NCBI GenBank assembly: GCA_027459485.1
Contig: DAIDIG010000006.1
Location: 124,001 to 188,000 of the forward strand
DNA length: 64,000 nucleotides
Direction of reading: 5' to 3'
Source of the DNA: Bdellovibrionales bacterium
Lineage (GTDB): Bacteria; Bdellovibrionota; Bdellovibrionia; Bdellovibrionales; UBA1609
Shown: piece after piece, positions 51,516 through 57,573 of the stretch
How the letters are laid out: every line of letters begins with the position of its first letter
Position numbering within the stretch: position 1 is the first letter of the stretch
Translations under genes and position numbers: made by a program
The notes under the pieces: model-generated
The model's database searches: none
Seen by the model: only the letters and a program-made list of their open reading frames with translations
Told to the model about the DNA's origin: nothing

Positions 51516-52256
51516 TTGGACCTCAATGTTGTGCTCGTCGGGTCGCTGTACTCACGAAATGTCGGCTATGTTTCACGTGCCATGGCAAACATGGGGGCCA
51601 ATCGGCTGATTTTAATCGATTGCAAATGCGATTACGATCTGAACGCGCGTGAAGGCGCGGCCGGGGCACAAACCCATCTGTTAACCGCCACCCGATATAC
51701 TTCATGGAGTGAATTTTTCGCGCAAGAGAAAGACGGAATTCGCATCGCCTTCAGCGCACGACAAAAGAAAGAGACCGACACGCTTTCATTCGAAGGGCGG
51801 CTCATTGAACTGCAGACGGACGAGCGCAACATCGGCACTCCCTATTATTTAATCTTCGGACCGGAGGATCATGGCCTATCTAATGCGGACGTCGAATTCG
51901 CTCATTATATTTGCGCCCTGCCAATCTATGGCCCCTTCAAAAGCTTGAATCTTTCTCACGCAGTTTTGGTGGCTCTCTATATTTTTCAATCGACCCAGTT
52001 GCGACTCGACAGCGAAGTGTCCGACGTGGGGAGTACAGCTGTCGCCGGCCCAACTCATTCCGACGATCGTTTTTTCTTCCCGAGCGAGGCTATCCAAAAC
52101 TGGCTCACCACACTCGGCTTTGAAATTGGCGACCGCCGCACCGACGCTTACAAAATTATGAAGCGGATTTTGCTGTCAAATCGCGCGACCCCAAAAGAAC
52201 TTCGAGTGTTAGAGGCGATCGTCCAACAAACTGTGCGTAAACTGAAAAATCAATAA
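51516..52256 (+). CDS. SpoU/TrmH-family RNA 2'-O-methyltransferase, TrmJ-like
   Basis: SPOUT-fold methyltransferase of about 246 residues. The N-terminus LNVVLVGSLYSRNVGYVSRAMANMG is the TrmJ-like opening, NIGTPYYLIFGPEDHGLSNADV the second motif and PIYGPFKSLNLSHAVLVALY the third, forming the AdoMet-binding knot. TrmJ enzymes modify position 32 of tRNA; that role is family knowledge. The start chosen is TTG at 51516, with AGGGA upstream; a longer frame back to 51444 overlaps the previous gene and has no conserved residues. It converges on hldD with a seven-base overlap. Confidence 0.88.
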   Translation: MDLNVVLVGSLYSRNVGYVSRAMANMGANRLILIDCKCDYDLNAREGAAGAQTHLLTATRYTSWSEFFAQEKDGIRIAFSARQKKETDTLSFEGRLIELQTDERNIGTPYYLIFGPEDHGLSNADVEFAHYICALPIYGPFKSLNLSHAVLVALYIFQSTQLRLDSEVSDVGSTAVAGPTHSDDRFFFPSEAIQNWLTTLGFEIGDRRTDAYKIMKRILLSNRATPKELRVLEAIVQQTVRKLKNQ

Positions 52257-53224
52257 TACGGATCACTCGCGAGCAGATAACTTTTCACGTAGTCGGCAAC
52301 GCCGTCCTCGAGATTGAAGCGCGGCTCTGAAAGGCGCTGCAATTGGGCTTTTTTCATTACAGCTTCAGTGAAGTATTGGTACTGGTTGCGAATTGATGTG
52401 GGCACGTCGATCCAGTCTATATTCACCGGTTGACCCATTTCTTTGAATACAGCTTCGGCCAAGCTCAACCAAGTGCGCGCGCGGCCATATCCCAAATTGT
52501 AAATGCCCGAAGCGAACAATTTGTTTTGAAAGATTTCGACCATCCAGCGCGCGATATCCTTTACGTAGACAAAATCACGCAGCTGCTCTCCGTCTTTGTA
52601 TTCGGGGCTGTGGGAGCGAAAAAGTCTCAAGCGACCGGAGCTTTTGATTTGAAGAAACGCTTTGTAGACGACGCTCGCCATTTCGCCCTTATGGTATTCG
52701 TTCGGGCCATAGACGTTGAAAAATCGCAAACCCGCCCAATGCGTCGGCGCTTTGGCTTGCTCCAGCGCCCACACGTCAAAATCACGCTTCGAACGGCCGT
52801 ATAAATTCAATGGCAAAAATGCTTTCGGGTCCGTTGTATCGTCAAACCCTTTTTCACCGCCGCCGTAAACGGCGCCACTGCTGGCATAGATAAAAGGAAT
52901 ATTCTTTTCGGCGCAATAACCGAACAGCGTTTTTGGTAGATCTATATTGTTCGTTACCAGTTTCTCCCAATCTGTTTCAGTCGTGGCTGAAATGGCGCCC
53001 ATGTGAAAAATGGCTTCGGGTGCGTTGGTGTCCGGAAGCGATAAAAGACAATTCAAAAAATCAGAGGGATTGAAGAATTTCTGGTAGCGGGTTTTACTGA
53101 GGGGCTCGGATCTTTCAATTAAATTCACGGTGTCAACGCAAACTATATCGTCGCGCCCGAGTTCATTAAGAAGCCGGACAAGAACGGACCCAATAAAACC
53201 ATTGGCGCCAGTGACTACGAGCAT
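52250..53224 (-). CDS. hldD: ADP-L-glycero-D-manno-heptose 6-epimerase
   Basis: Short-chain dehydrogenase/reductase enzyme that makes the heptose donor for the LPS inner core. NADP-binding start VVTGANGFIGSVL, FHMGAISATTETD, catalytic SSGAVYG and YGRSKRDFD (Y-x3-K), and GLRFFNVYGPNEYHK identify HldD. Length 324 is usual. ATG at 53224 is nine bases after the SelO-like stop; a frame start at 53242 overlaps it, and AAGGA touches that ATG. Probably translated by coupling with the upstream gene. Confidence 0.95.
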   Translation of the reverse strand: MLVVTGANGFIGSVLVRLLNELGRDDIVCVDTVNLIERSEPLSKTRYQKFFNPSDFLNCLLSLPDTNAPEAIFHMGAISATTETDWEKLVTNNIDLPKTLFGYCAEKNIPFIYASSGAVYGGGEKGFDDTTDPKAFLPLNLYGRSKRDFDVWALEQAKAPTHWAGLRFFNVYGPNEYHKGEMASVVYKAFLQIKSSGRLRLFRSHSPEYKDGEQLRDFVYVKDIARWMVEIFQNKLFASGIYNLGYGRARTWLSLAEAVFKEMGQPVNIDWIDVPTSIRNQYQYFTEAVMKKAQLQRLSEPRFNLEDGVADYVKSYLLASDPYY

Positions 53225-53232
53225 AGTTTTTT

Positions 53233-55080
53233 TTAGATGCATTCCTTATGACCGTCAATGATCTCGGCGAATACGGTTTGCAAGTCATAGCCTGGCGTCT
53301 TCTCGGGCCGGGAGTGTCCGTTGTCAGTTTGTGCGTCCACGAGTGATTCAATCGATGTCTGCACATCCGCTATCGAAAGCTTTTGCTTGCGTAACCCCAC
53401 GATCAGTTCGTCGACGATATAGAGTAGAGCGTCGCCGGTGATTCTGTCTTGCCGGTTCGCCCGTTCGGCGTTTTGCGCGAACTCCTTTGCCGAGAAATGT
53501 TGCAGCTTCTTTCGAAGTGAGAAATACAGATTTTGAAATTTTCGCTCATTTTGTAGTAATTTCGCGTTTGGCTTACGGTCCCGACCGCGCGCCGATTCGG
53601 CAAGTATTAGTTTGAACAGTTGACGATCCGGGATTGGGCCCGCGCGCTTGGCCAATTCCGTCAATGCCGCGCGCATGTTCAATATCGCCGGGCGGTTGAT
53701 GCCATCTGCGACTTTTCTTGTCTTTCGATGGGTTTTCGCTGACTCCAAAGTCAAAAACGCCTTGTAAACGCGCCCCACCAGATTGCGGTGGTCGTGCATT
53801 AGGTTGCGAATTTGGCGTTCGTTGCAGCCCGTTTGCCTCAAGAAAAGTCTTAAGATTTCGTCGTCCAGCGCGACATCGAACATTTGCAGAGACCAATGGT
53901 TTTGAAAGCAATTGAAACTTCTCTTCTTGCCGTATTTCAAAAAATCGAACACTTGGGCAAAAGTCTGGATAAGTAAGCGCGCCTTCGAACGTTGTTCATT
54001 GAGCGTGGTCGAAAAGCGTTCGACGTCGTCATAGCGGTATTGATCGTGTCGAAGACCGAACTGTCGGATGCTGCCGTAGTCGATTATGCCCGCCGAGGTG
54101 AGAACGTTGTCGCCGTCCCAGTCGAGCCAGGCAAAAATGTAATTGCGGTCCAATTTCGCGGCGAAACGCCCGAAATTTTTTGCGAAAGTTTTAAGCATGA
54201 GCTGATCGCGATTTCTTTGTCGGGCGTTAAAGAGCAGACGGCCGTTGCGAAATTCACGGTCGATAAGATAGTCGATCGAGCTTCGAAGCGCTTCGAAATT
54301 ATTTTGTTTCAAATGCATGAAAATATGGGCAGGCCGCATGAGATTAGGTGCTGCGCGTACGCCGATACCGTGACCGGCGCCCGTATCAATGACGGCGAGC
54401 ACACGTTCGGTTTCAATTTTATTTCGGTGAAATATTTCGGAGAAAATTGCGGCGCCGAGCAGTTCGTCGAGATCGGCAAGACCGCATCCGTAACCGTAAC
54501 GGGTTGAGCCTGAACGGAGAGGCTTTTGAGCTTCCACGTACCCCGGAGCAAGACAAGTGACCCCAGTGCCGCGACTGCTGACGTCCCACGTGACGCCCGC
54601 ATGGGTGATTTGTCCGTTCCAAATAGAACGTCCATCACCCGATGTTTTGCCCAGCTTATTCGAGTGTTGAAGTTGCAAATAACGAGTGGCCATGAATTTA
54701 TTCGGCTTCATAACCTGCGGCATATAGTGAACGTTTTGTTTCTGGTCGTATTCATTGATAATACGGATGCAAAACGCATCCAAAATGGCTCGTTCGAGTT
54801 TTTTATTAATCGCATGAGGATGCGCGCGAGAAATCAACCCCATCTCTTTGGCGAGATTGAAATTAAAATAAACGAGGCGCCCGCCGTCGAGCTTTCGCAC
54901 CGGATAGAGGACATACGTGTCAGGCATGGCCGCTTGCCATTCGTGCTGACCGTCAAGCTCACGGAACCTTTCATAAGGATCCGAAGTTGGACTGAGGCGG
55001 ATGCTGGCGGATGTAGTAATGCGACCCATTTCTTGAACCGTATCGGCATTTTGGCTTGAAAATTCAAATGACCGACGCAC
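53233..55080 (-). CDS. Divergent SelO-like pseudokinase (protein AMPylase fold)
   Basis: A 615-residue protein whose core follows SelO (YdiU), which transfers AMP to Ser/Thr/Tyr of redox proteins. Matches in order: GDGR (148-151); GVTWDVSSRGTGVT (162-175) for the SelO motif W-H-L-K-G-A-G; SEIFH (214-218) for the SEAMH helix; VRAAPNLMRPAHIF (241-254) for RVAPSHLRFG; AWLDWDGDN (317-325) for GVMNTDN; and IDYGSI (333-338) for LDYGPF. The metal-site Asn and Asp are kept. The ATP-site Lys is replaced in the SSR stretch. GTG start at 55080 is 20 bases after the ATP-grasp gene; ATG at 55029 is an alternative. A C-terminal Arg/Lys-rich helical region (residues 430-600) has no SelO counterpart I recognise. 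Confidence 0.78.
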   Translation of the reverse strand: MRRSFEFSSQNADTVQEMGRITTSASIRLSPTSDPYERFRELDGQHEWQAAMPDTYVLYPVRKLDGGRLVYFNFNLAKEMGLISRAHPHAINKKLERAILDAFCIRIINEYDQKQNVHYMPQVMKPNKFMATRYLQLQHSNKLGKTSGDGRSIWNGQITHAGVTWDVSSRGTGVTCLAPGYVEAQKPLRSGSTRYGYGCGLADLDELLGAAIFSEIFHRNKIETERVLAVIDTGAGHGIGVRAAPNLMRPAHIFMHLKQNNFEALRSSIDYLIDREFRNGRLLFNARQRNRDQLMLKTFAKNFGRFAAKLDRNYIFAWLDWDGDNVLTSAGIIDYGSIRQFGLRHDQYRYDDVERFSTTLNEQRSKARLLIQTFAQVFDFLKYGKKRSFNCFQNHWSLQMFDVALDDEILRLFLRQTGCNERQIRNLMHDHRNLVGRVYKAFLTLESAKTHRKTRKVADGINRPAILNMRAALTELAKRAGPIPDRQLFKLILAESARGRDRKPNAKLLQNERKFQNLYFSLRKKLQHFSAKEFAQNAERANRQDRITGDALLYIVDELIVGLRKQKLSIADVQTSIESLVDAQTDNGHSRPEKTPGYDLQTVFAEIIDGHKECI

Positions 55081-55100
55081 TTAGTGCGGTAAAGTCAGCA

Positions 55101-56144
55101 TTATTTAATTTGAACGGATGCAATCCCGCCGTTTGGGCCTGAAAAATTCGTAACCTGACCGGTGTAAAGTCGCGCACAGATCAATTGAATGTCTGATCTA
55201 TAGACAAAAAACCGCAAATCGAATTTCTGCCCCTGCCATTCACCCGCCGGGCGGAACTCTTGAACAATGTAGTCTTTGGTCAAGATATCTTGAAATATTT
55301 TGTTCGAAACTGAGGCACCTCGAAAAACGCCTTTTCCGCCAAATGAAGTGCGCGGTTTAAACACCAAATTCTTTCTTTGCGCCCAAACATCGTCGGGCCC
55401 GTCGAACGATCGAATATGACGAGTCGGTATTAATACGTCGGAAATTTTTCTATCAGAGAAATCGATCAAACGTTGCTTGTCGGCTAATAGCAAATATTCG
55501 CGCGGATGTGGGGACAACGCGAATTTGCCCGAATGCCAAGCGCGCCAAAGCCGATCGACTTTAGGCGATTCTAGGTAAAAATCAGTGGAGCGGTTGTACG
55601 TGAAGCTGGGCTGGCGTAACATATTTTCGACATCCAAATCGCCGGAGTCGCAAATCGTGACTTTGCCCGCGCCCCATTCGCGAAATAAGTCGCCGTACAT
55701 CAAAAATTCAAAATAAGACTTTTGATTTAGAGGATCGTCGTCGATGATGGCGACGATATCGGGCGCGCGGTTCGTCCATTCTTCGAAAAAAGAAGCGCGC
55801 AATTTTCGAATAGCTGATTCGCGTGTCGAGTCGTCGCTCAGTTCGGCTGCCAATAAAAACATCGAAGCGTTGGTGTTGATCTCGATCAGCGAAAGCTGGT
55901 CGGTCGCGATGTCGTAATGAAAATCAAAAGAAGTGAGAACCGATGAGTCCGGAGCCGGCGTCTCGAGAACCTCGATCTGTCGCGAATTGTCGAGGCGACA
56001 ACGAAGCTCGTTCAACCACTCCGCAGAATGAGCGAACGCGTGAATGTCGGTAATTGCGACCTGCGCTCGATTGAGCACCGAGCGCGGCAGAGTCAAATGA
56101 GTCGACGCGACCATGTTTTTCAAATGGTCGCGCAAATTACCCAC
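55101..56144 (-). CDS. ATP-grasp family protein
   Basis: A 347-residue protein with an ATP-grasp C-terminal half: VFKPRTSFGGKGVFRG (261-276; ATP-binding lysine and glycine loop), YIVQEF (292-297), and FDLRFFVYR with the terminal GQVTNFSGPNGGIASV. The N-half has LIEINTNASMFLLAAE (86-101), an ATP-grasp-associated passage usually seen as IEINTNAGG. Such enzymes join a carboxylate to an amine or thiol, so a peptide or glutathione-like product is possible (inference); the closest subfamily is unknown. GTG start at 56144, or ATG at 56114; neither has a strong ribosome site. Followed by the SelO-like gene after 20 bases. Confidence 0.78.
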   Translation of the reverse strand: MGNLRDHLKNMVASTHLTLPRSVLNRAQVAITDIHAFAHSAEWLNELRCRLDNSRQIEVLETPAPDSSVLTSFDFHYDIATDQLSLIEINTNASMFLLAAELSDDSTRESAIRKLRASFFEEWTNRAPDIVAIIDDDPLNQKSYFEFLMYGDLFREWGAGKVTICDSGDLDVENMLRQPSFTYNRSTDFYLESPKVDRLWRAWHSGKFALSPHPREYLLLADKQRLIDFSDRKISDVLIPTRHIRSFDGPDDVWAQRKNLVFKPRTSFGGKGVFRGASVSNKIFQDILTKDYIVQEFRPAGEWQGQKFDLRFFVYRSDIQLICARLYTGQVTNFSGPNGGIASVQIK

Positions 56145-56199
56145 TTCACGTAAGGCGGGATAGCTACTTTTTATTCGTTCAACCGGATCCGCTGGCAGA

Positions 56200-56724
56200 T
56201 CATTTCACCTGTACGTGTTTTTGACCCGGCTTCCAGCCTGCGCCGCAAAGTTCGCCCGATTTGAGCGCTTGCACGACGCGCAGAATTTCATTGGCATCAC
56301 GACCGACATCGAGGTTGTGAATGCCCATGTATTGGATCACTCCCTCAGGGTCGATGATGAATGTGCCACGAGTGGCGACGCCTTTGTCTTGCAAAAGAAC
56401 GCCGTAATCGCGCGCGATTTGTTTCGTCACGTCGCCGATGAGCGGGTAACCGAGATTGCCGAGGTCGTCTTTGAGCCAACGCTTGTGGGAGTGTACCGAA
56501 TCGACGCTACAGCCGAGAACTTCGGCGCCGGCTTCTTTGAATGTCTTCAAGTGATCGCGAAATTGTGTGATTTCAGTCGGGCAAACAAAAGTGAAGTCGA
56601 GCGGATAAAAAAACAGTACGACATATTTGCCTCGGTATGTCGAAAGGCTCACTTCTTTGAAGTCTCCACCGTCGACGACAGCCTGGGCGGTGAATTGTGG
56701 CGCTGGTTGACCGATCATGGGCAT
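56200..56724 (-). CDS. 2-Cys peroxiredoxin (AhpC/TSA family)
   Basis: A 174-residue thiol peroxidase that reduces hydrogen peroxide and organic peroxides. Peroxidatic cysteine lies in FFYPLDFTFVCPTEI, resolving cysteine in SGELCGAGWKPGQ, and the active-site Arg in KGVATRGTFIIDPEG; these are AhpC/Prx1-type features. AGGAGGAG precedes the ATG. It is the first gene of the minus-strand run to hldD, 55 bases upstream of the ATP-grasp gene, with no terminator visible between. Confidence 0.96.
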   Translation of the reverse strand: MPMIGQPAPQFTAQAVVDGGDFKEVSLSTYRGKYVVLFFYPLDFTFVCPTEITQFRDHLKTFKEAGAEVLGCSVDSVHSHKRWLKDDLGNLGYPLIGDVTKQIARDYGVLLQDKGVATRGTFIIDPEGVIQYMGIHNLDVGRDANEILRVVQALKSGELCGAGWKPGQKHVQVK

Positions 56725-56805
56725 AAAAGCTCCTCCTATTAATTATTTCGTCTTTCTTGTCAGTTCTAGTTTTATCTGCCACAAAAAGACCGGAGCGGCA
56801 ATGCA

Positions 56806-57573
56806 ATGCGAATCATTACGTGGAATGTAAACGGTGTGCGCGCCGTCATGAAGAAAGGTTTTTTCGAATTCATTTCGAAATCGAACCCCGACCTTCTTTG
56901 CATTCAAGAATCCAAGGCTCATCCTGACCAGGTTGAGCCCGAACTGTTGAATCCGTTCGGGCGCCAAAGCGCTTGGTCCAGTAGTCACCGACCGGGGTAT
57001 TCGGGCACTCTCACGTACTTTCGAATGCCGCCGAAATCCATCTCCCGCGGGATCGGCGTAAAGAAATTTGATTGCGAAGGGCGCTTCGTTATTACCGAAC
57101 ATGACGATTTTCTTCTCTACAATGTGTACTTTCCAAACGGGGGGTCCCGCGAAGAGCGCCATCTATTCAAACAGGATTTTTTGGCGCGCTTCAAAGATCA
57201 TCTGTCGGAGCAGCTTGAAAACGGACGCGAAGTGATATTGGTCGGCGATTATAACGTCGCGCCTCAAGAAATCGATGTCTATGATCCCGTTAAACTTTCA
57301 AAAGAGTCGGGTTTTTTGCCCGAAGAGCGCGAATGGTTCAAACAGTTACTGAGCACGGGCTTTGTCGACGTCTTTCGACATTTTCACCCGAATGAAAAAT
57401 TTCGCTACACGTGGTGGAACTATCTTGACCAAGGTCGGGCCGGCAATCGCGGCTGGCGGATCGACCACATTTGTGTGAGCAAAGGTCTGATCGGCCGCGT
57501 GAAAAGTTGCGATATATTAGAGGATGTCACCGGGTCGGACCATTGTCCCGTCATCTGCGAACTGGACCGTTGA
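56806..57573 (+). CDS. xth: Exodeoxyribonuclease III (AP endonuclease)
   Basis: EEP-fold nuclease of 255 residues that repairs abasic sites. Motifs: IITWNVNGVRA, LLCIQESKA with the metal-binding Glu, YNVYFPNGG, LVGDYNVAPQEIDVYDP, WRIDHICVS and GSDHCPV with the catalytic His. All active-site residues are present. The ATG at 56806 is divergent from the peroxiredoxin gene. Confidence 0.96.
   Translation: MRIITWNVNGVRAVMKKGFFEFISKSNPDLLCIQESKAHPDQVEPELLNPFGRQSAWSSSHRPGYSGTLTYFRMPPKSISRGIGVKKFDCEGRFVITEHDDFLLYNVYFPNGGSREERHLFKQDFLARFKDHLSEQLENGREVILVGDYNVAPQEIDVYDPVKLSKESGFLPEEREWFKQLLSTGFVDVFRHFHPNEKFRYTWWNYLDQGRAGNRGWRIDHICVSKGLIGRVKSCDILEDVTGSDHCPVICELDR

What the first reader, a model, noticed from the sequence alone, without database searches (positions are those of the whole stretch)
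53233..56724. Peroxiredoxin, ATP-grasp enzyme and divergent SelO-like protein in one transcription unit
The 615-residue protein keeps the order of SelO motifs, including the APxxxR strand, a D-x-D-N loop and DYG, yet is not an ordinary SelO. It is preceded by an ATP-grasp protein (20-base gap) and, 55 bases further up, a 2-Cys peroxiredoxin. SelO AMPylates redox proteins and affects S-glutathionylation, so a module that makes or modifies a small thiol or peptide and AMPylates redox targets is plausible. I know of no described system with this gene trio.
Basis: partly seen in the sequence, partly recalled or inferred. Interest (0 to 1): 0.8.

Follow-up and report, generated by a model that had tools for sequence, protein, structure and literature searches.

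The report
Divergent SelO family beside ATP-grasp gene
The window holds a peroxiredoxin, a peptide-ligase-like enzyme and a real but strongly altered relative of the protein-modifying enzyme SelO; the SelO relative is a new sub-family that has lost two textbook catalytic residues, but the gene trio looks like inherited gene order rather than a dedicated redox machine.

Summary
The three genes are at the stated coordinates, and a fourth gene, hldD, abuts the SelO-like gene. The 615-residue protein has the SelO fold: its model's nine best PDB matches are all SelO/YdiU (E 4e-14 to 2e-12). It belongs to a distinct paralogous family found in 214 of 369 Bdellovibrionota genomes (E <= 1e-6), often beside a canonical SelO.

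In 116 family members the metal and phosphate ligands (GDGR, R242, DN, DYG) are invariant. The beta3 lysine is Arg or Cys in nearly all and Lys in none. The alphaC glutamate is Ala/Ser/Thr/Cys/Gly. Both residues are 17/17 in canonical SelO of the same phylum. All 116 end in a fixed tail, typically E-[D/S/G]-I/L/F.

The ATP-grasp protein is a circularly permuted ligase of the glutathione synthetase/glutathionylspermidine synthetase fold.

The proposed redox module is weak. The tight trio occurs at 19 of 86 ATP-grasp loci (12 of 49 genera); the unrelated, divergent exonuclease III gene keeps its place at 77 of 86 (41 of 49). SelO-like and ATP-grasp do not co-occur beyond chance (Fisher p = 0.21). 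In sister families SelO-like instead adjoins an S51 peptidase gene (18 of 20).

Verdict: new variant of SelO; the trio is mainly retained synteny.

The parts
53233..55080 (-). Divergent SelO-like protein, 615 aa from GTG; likely true start Met18 at 55029
54571..54573 (-). Codon of R170, at the position of the beta3 (VAIK) lysine of SelO; R 94, C 17, Lys none counted, of 116
   Evidence: PMC12599244 for the WHLK/LHLK motif
54106..54123 (-). Codons of D320-N325 (DWDGDN): catalytic loop about two residues longer than in SelO, Asp at N minus 5, metal-binding Asn
54073..54081 (-). Codons of D334-Y335-G336 (DYG metal-binding motif)
53236..53247 (-). Codons of the C-terminal tail KECI; all 116 relatives end at this exact column, typically E-[D/S/G]-I/L/F
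55101..56144 (-). Circularly permuted ATP-grasp ligase of glutathione synthetase / glutathionylspermidine synthetase fold, 347 aa
56200..56724 (-). 2-Cys peroxiredoxin (AhpC/Prx1 type) with a strong ribosome-binding site (aggagg)
52250..53242 (-). hldD, ADP-glyceromanno-heptose 6-epimerase, overlaps or abuts the SelO-like stop codon; fourth gene of the apparent unit
   Evidence: TIGR02197 352.9 bits, cut-off 274.6
56806..57573 (+). Exonuclease III-like gene (xth), divergent; used as the synteny control

Best explanation
The SelO-like protein is a member of an old, single-copy sub-family of the SelO (protein-kinase-like) fold kept across the phylum Bdellovibrionota. It most likely still binds a nucleotide with metal through D324, N325, D334 and the arginines R151 and R242, and transfers part of the nucleotide or another group to a protein or peptide; but it does so with a rebuilt active site (beta3 Lys changed to Arg or Cys, alphaC Glu lost, catalytic loop lengthened by about two residues and carrying a new Asp), so its chemistry or regulation differs from canonical SelO AMPylation. 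Its fixed C-terminal tail probably docks on the body as a structural or regulatory element. The neighbouring ATP-grasp protein is a circularly permuted carboxylate-amine ligase acting on a small peptide or thiol. Prx, ATP-grasp, SelO-like and hldD are probably co-transcribed in this genome, but their proximity across the class is best explained by inherited regional gene order, not by an obligate redox module. Shown: fold, motif loss and retention, distribution, synteny statistics. Inferred: activity, tail docking, co-transcription, ligase substrate.
For: SelO fold: AF2 model pLDDT 87, PDB ranks 1-9 SelO, E 4e-14 to 2e-12; profile alignment to canonical SelO prob 96, E 2.6e-9. Residue table on 116 relatives vs 17 canonical SelO. 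Tail ends at the same column in 116 of 116 and the model gives it pLDDT about 85-90. Family in 97/144 class and 214/369 phylum genomes, almost always one copy; canonical SelO coexists in many. ATP-grasp: circular order against tubulin-tyrosine ligase-like chains; PDB best hits homoglutathione synthetase 3kal 2.6e-11, glutathionylspermidine synthases, YjfC/YgiC, trypanothione synthetase. Synteny control and Fisher test.
Against: No activity can be read from sequence; loss of the Lys/Glu pair could equally mean a non-catalytic scaffold. The alignment around the catalytic loop is ambiguous by two residues, so the role of D320 is uncertain. The tight trio does recur in 12 of 49 genera, so a functional link in part of the class is not excluded. 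Searches were confined to one phylum plus plasmids and viral contigs, apart from one close-relative scan of genome contigs.
Confidence: 0.6

Rival explanations
1. Redox module as first proposed: the ATP-grasp protein makes or modifies a small thiol or peptide, and the SelO-like protein AMPylates the peroxiredoxin or other redox targets.
For: Tight trio in 12 genera; ATP-grasp fold of the glutathione/glutathionylspermidine ligases; canonical SelO acts on redox proteins and protein glutathionylation (PMC12663964, PMC10211241).
Against: The unrelated divergent xth gene keeps its place more often than prx or SelO-like (77 vs 43 and 30 of 86); no significant co-occurrence of SelO-like and ATP-grasp in 144 genomes (p = 0.21); trio absent in sister families sampled; catalytic Lys and Glu absent.
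Confidence: 0.12
2. The SelO-like protein is a true pseudoenzyme: it binds nucleotide or nothing and works as a scaffold or regulator.
For: Beta3 Lys and alphaC Glu both lost in the members examined; many kinase-fold proteins with such losses are scaffolds (general knowledge; PMC10211241).
Against: GDGR, R242, D324, N325, D334 are 116/116 and further polar residues (H252, H345, R249, D322) are invariant, a pattern typical of an active site under selection.
Confidence: 0.22
3. The ATP-grasp protein is the missing glutathione synthetase (or a ligase adding another group to gamma-Glu-Cys) of the class, with the peroxiredoxin as a user of the thiol; the SelO-like gene is incidental.
For: All 10 genomes tested carry glutamate-cysteine ligase GshA (PF08886) and none carries a convincing GshB: PF02955 is absent in 5, and where it matches the scores are low; the stronger match in this genome is RimK. 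Best fold matches are eukaryotic-type glutathione synthetases. ATP-grasp present in 124/144 genomes.
Against: GshA is in 286/369 genomes, many without this ATP-grasp, which is in 136; 17 class genomes have GshA without it; the ATP-grasp is not adjacent to GshA in any of 10 loci; fold similarity does not fix the substrate, since YjfC and YgiC share the fold.
Confidence: 0.18
4. The ATP-grasp ligase modifies the conserved C-terminal tail of the SelO-like protein, as tubulin-tyrosine ligase and RimK modify C-termini.
For: Fixed tail in 116/116; ligase sequence resembles tubulin-tyrosine ligases; genes adjacent.
Against: 11 genomes have the SelO-like gene without the ligase and keep the same tail; the model docks the tail with good confidence.
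Confidence: 0.04

Closest known systems
SelO / YdiU protein adenylyltransferase (PF02696, NF000658; PDB 6EAC, 6LNA, 9JYM)
   Same: Fold (TM 0.56/0.71), GDGR, arginine strand, DN and DYG motifs, motif order
   Different: About 17% mean identity to 17 canonical SelO; no beta3 Lys, no alphaC Glu; lengthened catalytic loop DWDGDN instead of HGVxNTDN; about 130 extra residues and a fixed E-x-I type tail instead of the Cys/Sec motif
MchC / MceJ, distant SelO branch of microcin maturation (PMC3281104)
   Same: Another strongly diverged SelO branch with a varied HGV motif
   Different: Not compared by sequence here; different host range and gene context
Circularly permuted ATP-grasp ligases: eukaryotic-type glutathione synthetase, glutathionylspermidine synthetase, YjfC/YgiC, trypanothione synthetase
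   Same: Fold and permuted order (EINTN strand first, KFDLR region last); best PDB matches at E about 1e-11
   Different: 12-17% identity; no Pfam family over its cut-off for the window protein; family seen here only in Bdellovibrionota (no search outside was made)
AhpC / Prx1 2-Cys peroxiredoxins
   Same: FVCPTE peroxidatic motif, C-terminal Cys
   Different: Nothing unusual

Membership tests
SelO protein adenylyltransferase | SelO protein-kinase-like fold | tested here: met
SelO protein adenylyltransferase | Curated profile cut-off (PF02696 22.8 bits; NF000658 431 bits) | tested here: not met
   window protein 20.6 bits to NF000658, no PF02696 hit; 7 of 28 relatives match PF02696 at E up to 0.01
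SelO protein adenylyltransferase | Beta3 (VAIK-position) lysine, K113 in P. syringae, WHLK in E. coli | tested here: not met
   R94/C17/S2/A1/G1 of 116, no Lys counted; canonical 17/17 Lys; motif from PMC12599244
SelO protein adenylyltransferase | AlphaC glutamate | tested here: not met
   A/S/T/C/G in 116; canonical 17/17 Glu; E206 one helical turn earlier is nearly invariant but its role is unknown
SelO protein adenylyltransferase | Metal-binding Asn and DYG Asp (N253/D262 P. syringae; E. coli D256A is inactive, PMC12663964) | tested here: met
   N325 and D334 116/116
SelO protein adenylyltransferase | C-terminal Cys-x-x-[Cys/Sec]-x-x motif (frequent, not universal) | tested here: not met
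   all 116 end in tails such as EDI, ESI, EGL; feature from PMC3281104
SelO protein adenylyltransferase | AMP transfer with inverted ATP | not testable with these tools
   needs biochemistry
Circularly permuted ATP-grasp (glutathione/glutathionylspermidine synthetase type) | Permuted ATP-grasp fold | tested here: met
Circularly permuted ATP-grasp (glutathione/glutathionylspermidine synthetase type) | Ligase activity on glutathione or gamma-Glu-Cys | not testable with these tools
   needs biochemistry
Prx/ATP-grasp/SelO functional module | Linkage conserved beyond regional synteny | tested here: not met
2-Cys peroxiredoxin | AhpC-TSA domain with peroxidatic and resolving Cys | tested here: met
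   FVCPTE and ELCGAGW in the sequence

The most novel reading that the evidence does not exclude
The SelO-like family is an active SelO-fold enzyme with a re-built catalytic centre (Lys to Arg/Cys, new nearly invariant Asp five residues before the metal-binding Asn, the spacing seen in true kinases) that performs a transfer other than canonical AMPylation, coupled to peptide chemistry: a glutathione-synthetase-like ligase in one class and an adjoining S51 peptidase in its sister families.
Probability: 0.18. Interest if true: 0.7.

Novelty: new variant of a known kind. Interest (0 to 1): 0.42.

Why it matters
SelO showed that a 'pseudokinase' can move AMP instead of phosphate. A phylum-wide sister family that keeps the metal site but drops the Lys/Glu pair conserved in canonical SelO is a natural test of which residues define the chemistry of this fold. 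It also warns that a conserved gene trio in Bdellovibrio relatives can be plain synteny, and it points to an unassigned glutathione-synthetase-like ligase in a class that has glutamate-cysteine ligase but no clear GshB in the genomes tested.

Tried and rejected
(1) ATP-grasp modifying the SelO-like C-terminal tail: weakened, because 11 genomes lack the ligase and keep the tail. (2) Trio as a conserved module: fails the synteny control and the co-occurrence test. (3) SelO-like replacing canonical SelO: no, both coexist in many genomes, although this genome has only the SelO-like gene. (4) ATP-grasp as obligate partner of GshA: GshA is far more widespread. (5) SelO-like on mobile elements: no match in plasmids or viral contigs. 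(6) Sequence-only PDB search of the single protein found nothing. (7) Promoter/terminator scan uninformative, fewer hits than shuffles. (9) Literature: none of the searches showed a paper on a Bdellovibrio SelO-like or this ATP-grasp family; only open-licence papers were searchable.

Full report
What is there. On the minus strand lie a 2-Cys peroxiredoxin (56200-56724), a 347-residue ATP-grasp protein (55101-56144) and a 615-residue protein (53233-55080), exactly as described. hldD (52250-53242) follows with its start codon inside or just after the end of the third gene, so the apparent unit has at least four genes. The third protein probably starts at Met18 (55029): relatives begin there and the first 29 residues are disordered in the model. 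A divergent exonuclease III-like gene (56806-57573, plus strand) lies upstream.

SelO kinship. The single sequence barely reaches the YdiU profile (E 1.9e-4), but 25 of 28 relatives match it (best 4e-11) and 7 match Pfam SelO (best 1.5e-10). Profile-profile comparison with canonical SelO of the same phylum gives probability 96, E 2.6e-9. An AlphaFold2 model from 28 relatives (pLDDT 87, pTM 0.88) finds SelO structures as its nine best PDB matches (E 4e-14 to 2e-12, TM 0.54-0.58 by query, 0.69-0.73 by target), followed by ordinary protein kinases far below. The fold assignment is secure.

It is a separate family. It occurs in 97 of 144 genomes of the class and 214 of 369 of the phylum, almost always as one copy. 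Canonical SelO occurs in 239 of 369 at the Pfam level (a few of these weak hits are members of the SelO-like family itself) and coexists with it in many genomes; this genome lacks canonical SelO. Mean identity of the window protein is 45% to other members and 17% to canonical SelO. The phylum name rests on record titles such as 'uncultured Bdellovibrionales' among the loci and on genome lengths known from memory.

Active site. In 116 members against 17 canonical SelO: GDGR, the arginine of the RxAP strand (R242), the second arginine (R249), D324-N325 and D334-Y-G are kept. The beta3 lysine (WHLK/LHLK in PMC12599244) is R in 94, C in 17, S in 2, A in 1 and G in 1, with no Lys counted. The alphaC glutamate is A, S, T, C or G. 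The catalytic loop reads YIFAWLDWDGDN against FVHGVLNTDN, about two residues longer, which puts an almost invariant Asp (115/116) five residues before the metal-binding Asn, the spacing of the kinase HRD aspartate. The alignment cannot say whether D320 takes that role. The P. syringae numbering used for comparison is partly from memory; E. coli D256A is reported as inactive (PMC12663964) and I map it to D334 here.

C-terminus. All 116 end at the same column, with I 97, L 15 or F 4 last, mostly preceded by E-x. The model places this tail with good confidence. I tested whether it could be the substrate of the neighbouring ligase: 11 genomes with the SelO-like gene and no ligase keep the tail, so that is unlikely.

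ATP-grasp. The family aligns to tubulin-tyrosine ligase-like chains in swapped order (its KFDLR region matches the middle of the chain, its DFH...LIEINTN strand matches the end of the chain), the sign of circular permutation; single members touch CP_ATPgrasp_2, YheCD and TTL profiles weakly. The model (pLDDT 90.5) matches homoglutathione synthetase (2.6e-11), glutathionylspermidine synthetases, YjfC/YgiC and trypanothione synthetase best. All 10 genomes tested have glutamate-cysteine ligase GshA (PF08886), none has PF04262, and the GshB domain is absent in 5 and weak in the rest; of this genome's two matches the stronger is RimK. The ligase could therefore be an unrecognised glutathione-synthetase-like enzyme, but GshA is present in 286 of 369 genomes, many without this ligase, so the link is only suggestive.

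Is the trio a module? Within the class the order exonuclease III (divergent), prx, ATP-grasp, SelO-like, hldD and further genes is old. Among 86 ATP-grasp loci with enough flank, the divergent exonuclease gene, which has no expected role in a redox module, is in place at 77 (41 of 49 genera), prx directly upstream at 43 (23 genera), SelO-like directly downstream at 30 (17 genera), and the tight trio at 19 (12 genera). Presence of SelO-like and ATP-grasp is not significantly associated in 144 genomes (86 both, 11 SelO-like only, 38 ATP-grasp only, 9 neither; Fisher p = 0.21; counts). In 20 loci sampled outside the class, the SelO-like gene has no prx, ATP-grasp or hldD nearby but overlaps or abuts an S51 peptidase gene in 18, usually by 4 bases; the few ATP-grasp genes found there lie elsewhere. 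Retained gene order explains the trio; co-transcription in this genome is plausible but does not show a common function.

Limits. No coordinates of the models were available, so distances could not be measured. Activity is not shown for any of the proteins.

Noticed in passing
L197-L216 (20 loci, same phylum, outside the class): SelO-like gene overlaps or abuts a Peptidase S51 (PepE/cyanophycinase-like) gene in 18 of 20, mostly by 4 bases; the same family is also near it in L155 and L156. This linkage is tighter than the trio.
   Followed up: partly
G000:C6:77569-78717 (outside the window) and 9 other genomes: GshA-type glutamate-cysteine ligase (PF08886) present without a convincing glutathione synthetase; in most of the loci GshA follows ArsA/MinD-like ATPase genes, not a GshB.
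   Followed up: partly
116 SelO-like proteins, last residue: The protein ends at exactly the same alignment column in all members, with I/L/F last and usually an acidic residue two before it.
   Followed up: yes
L013, L021, L093: Some SelO-like open frames run to about 780-950 codons by N-terminal extension; not checked whether these are real fusions or late start sites.
   Followed up: no
G062 and G043: Contig lengths 3,782,950 and 2,657,893 equal, from memory, those of B. bacteriovorus HD100 and B. exovorus JSS: the first has SelO-like and ATP-grasp about 4.6 kb apart, the second only the ATP-grasp.
   Followed up: no
window 56215-56742 (+): A 175-codon antisense open frame covers the peroxiredoxin gene; likely only a mirror of its codon bias.
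   Followed up: no
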